DNA from: an uncultured Candidatus Thioglobus sp.
GTDB taxonomy: Bacteria > Pseudomonadota > Gammaproteobacteria > PS1 > Pseudothioglobaceae
Length of the DNA: 37,149 nt
Direction of reading: 5' to 3'
NCBI GenBank assembly: GCA_000205985.2
Contig: GG729997.1
Coordinates: 1 to 37,149 of the forward strand
Shown here: positions 31,221 through 37,149 of the stretch, piece after piece
Layout of the letters: each line of letters starts with the position of its first letter
How positions within the stretch are numbered: position 1 is the first letter of the stretch
Position numbers and translations under genes: made by a program
The notes under the pieces: generated by a model
Databases searched by the model: none
What the model was told of the DNA's origin: nothing
The model's input: only the letters and a program-made list of their open reading frames with translations

Positions 31221-32765
<1,545 letters not shown>

Positions 32766-32858: not shown

Positions 32859-32935
<77 letters not shown>

Positions 32936-33086
32936 CTTTTTCATTTTACGGCGTTAAAAGTTCAGTCGTTTACCTAGTTGTAAGCCCCATTACTTTTGCC
33001 TTGTATAATAAAAAAGACTTATATATAGGGCTAGCTTAAAATAGAGTAATCGATATAATATGATTAGTCTGTTATTTTTCTTTTAG

Positions 33087-33159
33087 GTGAGGCGCATGAC
33101 AAATAAATGCGGGAGTGTAGTAAATCTACATGACCAAATGCAAGAGGAATGCAACAAAG
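33087..33159 (+). repeat. Structured spacer element, copy A
   Basis: Located between the two tRNAs. Order: GTGAGGC, 18 bases, GGAGT, a 4-bp hairpin GTAG-TAAAT-CTAC, ATGAC, and AACAAAG near the end. Copy B at 33607-33678 has the same order and spacing but a different stem sequence. Flanks (GTTATTTTTCTTTT at 33071-33084 and AAAAGAATAAC ending at 33179) can also pair. The tRNA-tRNA gap of 248 bases holds nothing else I recognise. Confidence 0.6.
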
Positions 33160-33183
33160 CATAAAAGCAAAAGAATAACTAAT

Positions 33184-33259
33184 GGGGCCATAGCTCAGCT
33201 GGGAGAGCGCTTGCCTTGCACGCAAGAGGTCGGGAGTTCGATCCTCCCTGGCTCCACCA
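33184..33259 (+). tRNA. tRNA-Ala(TGC)
   Basis: A 76-nt tRNA starting GGGGCCATAGCTCAGCTGGG, with anticodon TGC at 33217-33219, T loop GAGTTCGATCC, and a genomic CCA. The second tRNA of the 16S-23S spacer. Confidence 0.98.
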
Positions 33260-33343
33260 CTTAATCTTTCACTTAAAAACTTAAACAAGATAATGTTAAT
33301 CGTTACTTTGTTTAAGTTTTTATACCGCGCCTTCGGGTGTGGA

Positions 33344-33358
33344 GCTCTTTAACAATTT
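33344..33358 (+). promoter_or_regulatory. boxA site before the 23S
   Basis: GCTCTTTAACAATTT, a nearly consensus boxA, lies in the spacer about 370 bp before the 23S start, as in other gammaproteobacterial rrn operons. Confidence 0.85.
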
Positions 33359-33400
33359 AATACATGAAGTAAAGTTTGTAAATATACAATATAACAACGC

Positions 33401-33551
33401 GATGACTGTTGTGATGACAGTCATCATTGGTGTATTGCATTGACACAACAATTTCAAAAAATATGGATTCTCATTGAGAGATTAATTTCTCTCATTGAAA
33501 AATAAAAAGAATTCACCGATTGAGATTTATCTCAATTTGTGACTTCAAGGT
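33401..33551 (+). repeat. Cluster of hairpins in the 16S-23S spacer
   Basis: Several inverted repeats in a row: GATGACTGT/ACAGTCATC (33401-33409, 33417-33425), TGAGAGA/TCTCTCA around 33475-33500, ATTGAGAT-TT-ATCTCAAT around 33520-33537, and CACC/GGTG flanking it. Also 33430-33447 pairs with the 23S-5S spacer (36684-36700). The gap 33260-33726 has no gene. Confidence 0.55.
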
Positions 33552-33606
33552 GAAATACGAAACCTTATAACCTTTATAGGTTTGAGATTTTAGATTTTGT
33601 TTGGAT

Positions 33607-33678
33607 TTGAGGCATTTTTTGAGCGAACGCCGGAGTTTGGTTAATCCAAATGACAAGTGAGCGAAGAAAATAACAAAG
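33607..33678 (+). repeat. Structured spacer element, copy B
   Basis: Order: TTGAGGC, 18 bases, GGAGT, a 4-bp hairpin TTGG-TTAAT-CCAA, ATGAC, and AACAAAG. The frame and spacing match copy A at 33087-33159, while both sides of the stem have changed and remain paired. Confidence 0.6.
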
Positions 33679-33726
33679 AAGACAAATAAAAGATAGAAGA
33701 TACAAGCAGATAATTTGGGGTTATAT

Positions 33727-36627
<2,901 letters not shown>

Positions 36628-36821: not shown

Positions 36822-36940
36822 TGCTTAGTGACAATAGCGAGTGTGACCCACCTGATCCCATACCGAACTCAGAAGTGAAACCACTTAGCGCCGATGGTAG
36901 TGTGGGGTCTCCCCATGTGAGAGTAGGACATTGCTAGGCT
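36822..36940 (+). rRNA. rrf: 5S ribosomal RNA
   Basis: About 119 nt. The conserved core CCGAACTCAGAAGTGAAAC, CGCCGATGGTAGTGTGGGGT and CCCCATGTGAGAGTAGG is clear. The ends TGCTTAGTG and TTGCTAGGC pair with some G-U pairs. Exact ends are within a few bases. Confidence 0.95.
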
Positions 36941-37027: not shown

Positions 37028-37149
37028 ATGAATACTGTAGAAGTCTTAAATGAAGCAATTAATCTTAAATCAAAAGAGCGTTTTATACTTGTTGAAGGTA
37101 TATTAAAAAGCCTTGATAAACCTGGTGGTCCCCCGGTCCCACTCAAACT
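37028..37149 (+). CDS. Start of a ParE-cognate addiction-module antitoxin-like gene (partial)
   Basis: From ATG 37028, with AAGAGGGTGAT as ribosome site, 40 codons run to the window end: MNTVEVLNEAINLKSKERF, ILVEGILKSLDKP and then GGPPVPLK. The first part matches the short addiction-module component family (TIGR02574-like), in which LSPEER...LVEALLxSLD is typical; such proteins are usually antitoxins next to a RelE/ParE toxin. The last eight residues, encoded by unusually GC-rich DNA, do not match the family and may be a sequence end artefact. Confidence 0.6.
   Translation, partial: MNTVEVLNEAINLKSKERFILVEGILKSLDKPGGPPVPLK

What the first reader, a model, noticed from the sequence alone, without database searches (positions are those of the whole stretch)
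33087..33678. Two copies of a structured element in the rRNA spacer, with compensatory changes in the stem
Seen: copy A (33087-33159) and copy B (33607-33678) share TGAGGC, exactly 18 bases, GGAGT, a 4-bp hairpin with loop TwAAT, ATGAC, and AACAAAG, over 72-73 bases. The stem is GTAG/CTAC in A and TTGG/CCAA in B, so three positions changed on both sides while pairing was kept. That points to selection on structure, or to a mobile palindromic family. The 16S-23S spacer is also long (about 960 bp), partly because of these elements. Inference: they may be a small repeat family that inserted twice, or an RNA motif acting in rRNA processing or antitermination.
Basis: partly seen in the sequence, partly recalled or inferred. 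Interest (0 to 1): 0.62.

Follow-up and report, generated by a model that had tools for sequence, protein, structure and literature searches.

The report
ERIC-like mobile hairpins in rRNA spacer

Summary
Both copies share the stated blocks, and the stem keeps pairing while its bases change, though at two of four pairs, not three. A covariance model built only from other organisms finds copy A at E=2e-18, copy B at E=5e-14, and a third, reversed copy at 32937-33014. This genome holds about 16 copies. The spacer sites are empty in several sister species, so the copies are best read as insertions. The architecture is a ~125-bp hairpin with conserved GAGGC/AACRAAG and GGAG/UGAC internal loops and covarying stems. 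Models that contain no E. coli sequence pick out a known E. coli ERIC repeat as their only hit in 40 kb. Related multicopy elements occur in Legionella, Kangiella, Zooshikella, Campylobacter, Bacteroidales and Clostridia. In the Legionella-type branch, 11 of 27 copies with recognisable ends carry exact 5-bp target duplications. Best reading: non-autonomous, MITE-like mobile hairpins of an ERIC superfamily. A native role in rRNA processing is not, but elements recur in rRNA spacers of unrelated gammaproteobacteria, so co-option remains open. The mobilising transposase was not found.

The parts
33068..33178 (+). Copy A: ERIC-like palindromic element in the tRNA-Ile/tRNA-Ala spacer; model cores 33077-33171 (R1) and 33057-33191 (R2)
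   Evidence: R1 68.9 bits E=2.4e-18; R2 87.9 bits E=2.3e-17; outer limits taken from the palindrome arms
33088..33159 (+). Copy A conserved core TGAGGC...AACAAAG
   Evidence: sequence
33112..33134 (+). Copy A apical hairpin GGAG-UGUAG-UAAAU-CUACA-UGAC with tandem G.A pairs
33588..33700 (+). Copy B: ERIC-like element between the boxA-like sequence and the 23S processing stem; model cores 33597-33690 (R1) and 33577-33710 (R2)
   Evidence: R1 54.5 bits E=5.2e-14; R2 54.5 bits E=6.9e-10; fold
33608..33678 (+). Copy B conserved core TGAGGC...AACAAAG
   Evidence: sequence
33632..33654 (+). Copy B apical hairpin GGAG-UUUGG-UUAAU-CCAAA-UGAC
32937..33014 (-).
   Evidence: R1 22.4 bits E=2.8e-4; R2 43.3 bits E=2.1e-7; homologous reverse copies in G017 and G011
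32859..32935 (+). tRNA-Ile(GAT), spacer context
33184..33259 (+). tRNA-Ala(TGC), spacer context
33344..33354 (+). boxA-like GCTCTTTAACA, conserved in sister spacers
   Evidence: sequence and alignment; name from general knowledge

Best explanation
Copies A, B and the reversed third copy A' are insertions of a dispersed, non-autonomous mobile element: a ~110-135-bp imperfect palindrome of the ERIC type (an ERIC superfamily). Shown: one strand folds into a long hairpin with covarying stems and two conserved non-Watson-Crick internal loops (GAGGC or CAAGGC opposite AACRMAG; GGAG opposite UGAC). It is multicopy in this genome and in many others, mostly intergenic, and absent from several sister loci. 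Inferred: it moves in trans by a DDE-type transposase that recognises the ends. The support is exact 5-bp target duplications in the Legionella-type branch and ERIC-like TATACTC...GAGTATA ends in other gammaproteobacteria. Also inferred: the inner loops are kept because the folded strand (RNA or single-stranded DNA) matters to the element itself, for example for mobilisation or for being tolerated inside host transcripts. In the rRNA spacer the copies would be co-transcribed and fold as side hairpins between the tRNAs and between boxA and the 23S processing stem, where they are tolerated.
For: Model R1, built from 34 sequences of other organisms, finds A (E=2.4e-18), B (5.2e-14) and A' (2.8e-4). 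R2 finds all three and 16 copies in this genome. Covariation on A1: 86.7% of cells paired against 59.6% in shuffles, score 0.686 against 0.189. On 18 rRNA-spacer copies: 91.4% against 71.0% (that alignment is fitted to the model structure). Sister-genome empty and filled sites. Hits in 41 of 91 relatives and 69 of 274 sampled Gammaproteobacteria genomes. Copy numbers: Marinilabilia 96, L. waltersii 79, a Bacteroidales MAG 52, a Clostridiales MAG 34, Campylobacter gastrosuis 14. 5-bp target duplications in 11 of 27 Legionella-type copies, shuffled mean 0.49, maximum 4. Mostly intergenic with no orientation bias. E. coli ERIC is the only hit of R1 (E=0.0036) and R2 (E=6.9e-6) in 40 kb. Wobble pairs are G.U rather than A.C: 47:19, 33:6, 58:10.
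Against: No transposase with matching ends was found (exact TIR search). Target duplications could not be read for the window's own copies, whose ends look eroded. Copy B sits at the same site in several genera, so it is probably an old insertion, and its persistence could reflect function. The elements are over-represented in rRNA spacers. Empty sites could in part be losses. Homology across phyla rests on a short structured core and could be convergence.
Confidence: 0.87

Rival explanations
1. The hairpins are functional RNA parts of the rRNA precursor (processing, folding or antitermination), native or co-opted from the mobile element.
For: Enrichment in spacers: 3 of 16 own copies lie in one 961-bp spacer, and 3 of 9 element-bearing genomes outside the family with a detectable 23S carry copies in the spacer, two of them just upstream of 23S as copy B is. 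Copy B is at the same site in several genera. G.U wobble preference in spacer copies.
Against: Both sites are empty in G010, G028, G021, G026, G004 and others. Loops have decayed at the B site in G024/G029/G033, where R1 finds nothing. A' is in the opposite orientation. Most copies are outside rrn operons.
Confidence: 0.12
2. The covariation comes from quasi-palindrome correction (template switching at hairpins during replication), which changes both arms in one event, and not from selection for a fold.
For: Long AT-rich palindromes are known targets of such mutation (general knowledge); stems vary freely in sequence.
Against: The two internal loops, which are mismatched and would be erased by such correction, are the most conserved parts, also in CM-found copies not chosen by pattern. 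G.U outnumbers A.C on one strand, which a strand-symmetric mutational process does not predict.
Confidence: 0.12
3. The elements are mobile palindromes but unrelated to ERIC; the GGAG/UGAC core is convergent, for example a stable apical fold that arises repeatedly in MITEs.
For: Nucleotide identity to ERIC is low; R1 scores ERIC only 18.8-20.2 bits. Ends differ between branches (CAGGACTTACG in Legionella, TATACTC elsewhere).
Against: R2, without E. coli sequence, aligns ERIC over its full 136 positions at E about 5e-6, sole hit in 40 kb. Both lower and upper loops lie in register. G088 and Zooshikella elements share ERIC's TATACTC...GAGTATA ends.
Confidence: 0.2
4. Chance similarity of two hairpins in an AT-rich spacer.
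For: Loose core pattern with 3 mismatches is at chance level in the window.
Against: Exact matches only at A and B; E-values from an independent model; 16 genomic copies.
Confidence: 0.01

Closest known systems
ERIC (enterobacterial repetitive intergenic consensus, also IRU or RU-1)
   Same: Length about 127 bp, long imperfect hairpin, GGAG-stem-loop-UGAC apex, AAGGC opposite AACGCA-type lower loop, end-proximal AAG..GACGAG, intergenic dispersion; the only model hit in 40 kb of E. coli. Published traits: 7-bp TIR, TA at the termini, TSD (PMC2229807).
   Different: Primary sequence is mostly different. The window copies lack clear TATACTC/GAGTATA ends. The hosts lie outside Enterobacteriaceae and Vibrionaceae, the two families named for ERIC in a 2024 review (PMC10969869).
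V_AS5 RNA (Rfam RF02818, Vibrio)
   Same: Rfam's V_AS5 model matches E. coli ERIC over its full length, although below the gathering score (E=3e-8), so it looks like a Vibrio ERIC.
   Different: It is not among the matches to the spacer (33000-33740) at E<=10.
Other bacterial MITEs such as Correia/NEMIS, RUP, Coxiella QMITEs
   Same: Small, palindromic, non-autonomous, intergenic, thought to be moved in trans by transposases (PMC2229807, PMC10969869).
   Different: No relationship of sequence or core motif was tested; named from reviews only.
REP/RAYT repeats and integron attC sites
   Same: Folded single-strand elements with conserved mismatches.
   Different: Different size and consensus: no GTAG/CGTC tag, no R/L boxes seen. 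Considered from memory, not tested with models.

Membership tests
ERIC | Imperfect palindrome of about 127 bp that folds as one long hairpin | tested here: met
   A about 111 bp of palindrome, R2 span 135; B R2 span 134; folds. A' is shortened (78 nt in R1).
ERIC | Central GGAG-stem-loop-UGAC core and AAGGC / AACGCA-type lower loop | tested here: met
   GAGGC and AACAAAG in the window, GAAGGC and AACGCAG in E. coli ERIC.
ERIC | Detectable similarity to E. coli ERIC | tested here: met
   By covariance model only: R2 37.4 and 36.7 bits, E about 5e-6; R1 20.2 and 18.8 bits; sole hit in 40 kb. Rfam V_AS5, which does match ERIC, does not match the spacer.
ERIC | 7-bp terminal inverted repeat with TA at the ends and TA target duplication | tested here: inconclusive
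   Not clear in A, B or A'. Other copies in this genome end in TAC...GTA. G088 and Zooshikella copies have TATACTC...GAGTATA. Empty-site comparison of copy B does not resolve a TSD.
ERIC | Dispersed, intergenic, multicopy | tested here: met
   16 copies in the 1.17-Mb assembly; 72 of 80 classed pattern matches from other genomes intergenic.
ERIC | Host range Enterobacteriaceae and Vibrionaceae (as described) | tested here: not met
   The window genome and hits are elsewhere in Gammaproteobacteria and in other phyla. This is a published distribution, not a mechanistic definition; it is why I say ERIC superfamily and not ERIC.
MITE | Short, no coding capacity, terminal inverted repeats | tested here: met
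MITE | Target-site duplication | tested here: met
   For the Legionella-type branch only: exact 5-bp duplications in 11 of 27 copies, against 0.49 expected. Not shown for the window copies.
MITE | Autonomous partner with the same ends | tested here: inconclusive
   No pair of exact CAGGACTTACG ends around a transposase-sized interval in three Legionella drafts; drafts may collapse IS copies.
Rfam RNA families | Match above the gathering score | tested here: not met
   only rRNA, tRNA, lysine riboswitch and SRP RNA.
Native rRNA-processing or antitermination motif of the spacer | Conserved presence in the spacer of relatives | tested here: not met
   Absent from many sister spacers.

The most novel reading that the evidence does not exclude
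ERIC is one branch of a bacteria-wide superfamily of mobile hairpins (Gammaproteobacteria, Campylobacterota, Bacteroidota, Clostridia, Bacteriovoracaceae). Its members share a strand-specific fold with two conserved non-canonical loops. The shared fold, not the ends, defines the family and serves the element's own spread. The ends have been exchanged between branches, so different transposases move the same hairpin cargo. Copies are preferentially kept in rRNA spacers.
Probability: 0.4. Interest if true: 0.82.

Novelty: new variant of a known kind. Interest (0 to 1): 0.6.

Why it matters
ERIC has been used for strain typing for decades, and PMC2229807 says of such small mobile sequences that there is no experimental support yet for how they are moved. 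A shared fold across phyla gives many more natural examples. The Legionella-type branch, with intact ends, near-identical copies and 5-bp duplications, makes the mobilisation question directly testable. The repeated presence in rRNA spacers shows that long hairpins are tolerated, or perhaps used, in one of the most constrained transcripts of the cell. It also warns that 16S-23S spacer length, used in typing, can be driven by mobile repeats.

Tried and rejected
Rfam at gathering and permissive thresholds: no known RNA family for the window or for 18 related loci. Native spacer motif: rejected because sister spacers lack the hairpins at clean sites. Orientation-dependent host regulation as the general role: no bias relative to genes, 18 against 22 and 14 against 18. 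tRNA-gene targeting: 3 of 13 own copies outside the spacer touch a tRNA gene, but only 2 of 24, 4 of 26 and 3 of 108 in the other sets, so not pursued. Autonomous partner by exact ends in three Legionella genomes: none. The contig-end repeat next to several L. waltersii copies led to an IS110-like transposase, apparently a separate element that inserts at these palindromes. Papers: no description found of the wider family or of the Legionella ends; subscription papers are not held. A genome-wide model search of the E. coli genome was not possible and was replaced by one 40-kb stretch.

Full report
What is there. The window holds an rRNA operon: 16S 31221-32765, tRNA-Ile 32859-32935, tRNA-Ala 33184-33259, 23S from 33727, 5S 36824-36939. 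Two details need correction. Two, not three, of the four stem pairs changed on both sides, and the apical stem has two further pairs (G.U and U-A). Each copy is the centre of a longer imperfect palindrome of about 110 bases. In RNA folding it forms one long hairpin with regularly spaced small internal loops.

Not chance. A pattern made from A and B matches this 1.17-Mb draft genome only at A and B, with no match for the reversed control. A looser pattern found the same design elsewhere in this genome and in relatives, and 11 close copies in one other gammaproteobacterium, G088. By my estimate a handful of these are chance matches. L118 (Rhodobacteraceae) looks like one and was left out.

An independent model. 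From 34 of these foreign sequences, none from the window or its family, I built covariance model R1. Outside the bases fixed by the search pattern the stems covary strongly: 86.7% of cells pair against 59.6% in shuffles, and sliding the partners by one base drops this to 36-40%. R1 then finds copy A at 68.9 bits (E=2.4e-18), copy B at 54.5 bits (E=5.2e-14) and a third copy on the minus strand at 32937-33014 (22.4 bits, E=2.8e-4), with nothing else in the window up to E=10. A second model R2, from 24 gammaproteobacterial sequences found by R1 and not by pattern, gives 2.3e-17, 6.9e-10 and 2.1e-7 for the three copies. R2 includes five copies from other species of the window's own family. It finds 16 copies in this genome, all at E<=2.6e-4; two of these (C17 and C28) are identical with their flanks and may be one locus assembled twice. 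E-values are rough because calibration is shortened.

Insertions. In sister genomes of the same family the spacer without elements is about 600-640 bp, against 961 bp here. Copy B's place is occupied in G017, G002, G015, G011 and G031 (two in tandem), decayed in G024, G029 and G033, reduced to a remnant in G022 and G005, and empty in G010, G028, G021, G026, G004, G019, G020, G013, G034 and G003. Copy A is absent from its nearest relatives in the tree (G021, G026, G004) and from G017. Elements also occur in the 16S-Ile spacer of G002, G005 and G022 and in the Ile-Ala spacer of G011, G022, G005 and G018, in both orientations. Copy B therefore looks like an old insertion kept by some genera and lost by others; loss against recurrent gain was not settled. 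Copy A looks younger. The loops of copy B degenerate in the g2 genomes, as expected of an element no longer under selection there.

Relation to ERIC. The core recalls ERIC, and I tested this. R1 finds the ERIC repeats between ybhJ-ybhI and pgk-fbaA at 20.2 and 18.8 bits; R2 finds them at 37.4 and 36.7 bits, aligned over the full length. In 40 kb of E. coli around pgk-fbaA, the ERIC repeat is the only hit up to E=10 for both models. E. coli ERIC has the GGAG/UGAC apex, an AAGGC/AACGCAG lower loop and TATACTC...GAGTATA ends. The same ends are seen in G088 and Zooshikella elements, and TAC...GTA ends in most other copies of this genome. Rfam's V_AS5 matches ERIC below its threshold but not the window. 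Published descriptions place ERIC in Enterobacteriaceae and Vibrionaceae with a 7-bp TIR, TA termini and a target duplication (PMC2229807, PMC10969869). I therefore place the window copies in an ERIC superfamily, not in ERIC itself.

Mobility. Direct evidence comes from the Legionella-type branch, whose ends are CAGGACTTACG...CGTAAGTCCTG. Of 27 copies with recognisable ends, 11 have an exact 5-bp duplication of the flank, against a mean of 0.49 and a maximum of 4 in shuffles, and no excess at other lengths. Copy numbers reach 96 in Marinilabilia, 79 in L. waltersii, 52 in a Bacteroidales MAG and 34 in a Clostridiales MAG. Copies are mostly intergenic (72 of 80) and show no orientation preference relative to genes. 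I infer movement in trans by DDE-type transposases. The enzyme was not found.

Why the fold is kept. In three alignments the non-Watson-Crick pairs in the variable stems are G.U rather than A.C: 47 to 19, 33 to 6 and 58 to 10. That points to folding of one particular strand, as RNA or as single-stranded DNA, and argues against purely strand-symmetric correction of palindromes. Two caveats: MAFFT and model-fitted alignments lean towards the structure, and related sequences are not independent. What the fold does is inferred, not shown. For ERIC in Yersinia, effects on upstream mRNA stability through an RNase E site, dependent on orientation, are reported (PMC2229807, PMC10969869).

Why the rRNA spacer. 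Three of 16 copies in one 961-bp spacer is more than a random spread gives. Outside the family, nine element-bearing genomes had a 23S detectable with my query. Three of them (G103, G231, G236) carry elements in the spacer, and in G103 and G236 one copy lies about 50-70 bases upstream of 23S, as copy B does. The sample is small, and the spacer is a long non-coding target. Insertion preference, better retention or co-option would all fit. I give co-option or a native role about 12%.

Verdict. The kind of thing, an ERIC-like mobile palindrome, is known. Its breadth, its strand-specific shared fold and its recurrence in rRNA spacers were not found described in the open literature available here.

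Noticed in passing
L214:2502-3935 (Legionella waltersii) and L134, L087, L148, L164: Several L. waltersii ERIC-like copies are cut at AAGCATTTCAAGCACAAAGTGCTCC and joined to an 80-nt repeat; at one such repeat (L214) the next gene is a 477-aa transposase that looks IS110/IS1111-like (by eye, no family search), suggesting that this IS targets the palindromes.
   Followed up: partly
L117:155-615: Four ERIC-like hairpins in tandem, about 120-150 bp apart, in a Bacteroidetes MAG contig.
   Followed up: no
L049 (G031) Ile-Ala spacer, about 697-1341: In relative G031 the tRNA-Ile/tRNA-Ala spacer is 645 bp and holds a sequence that reads like a small lipoprotein gene (ATGAAAAAGAAAAATTTATTTTTAGTTATTG...).
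   Followed up: no
own genome C17:12546-12685 and C28:4829-4968 (L253, L254): Two identical element copies with identical near flanks on different contigs: a recent duplication or an assembly duplicate of the draft genome.
   Followed up: no
L034 (G017:C9) 3-867: The 16S of G017 is only 86% identical to the window's 16S while its spacer and 23S are 91-98% identical, which suggests a chimeric or contaminated MAG contig.
   Followed up: no
L167:259-382: Rfam V_AS5 (Vibrio RNA AS5, RF02818) matches E. coli ERIC repeats over its whole length at E=3e-8, so that 'antisense RNA' family is probably a Vibrio ERIC element.
   Followed up: partly
window 37029-37149: An open reading frame at the window end begins MNTVEVLNEAINLKSKERFILVEGILKSLDKPGGPPVPL, resembling a short addiction-module antitoxin (by eye only).
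   Followed up: no
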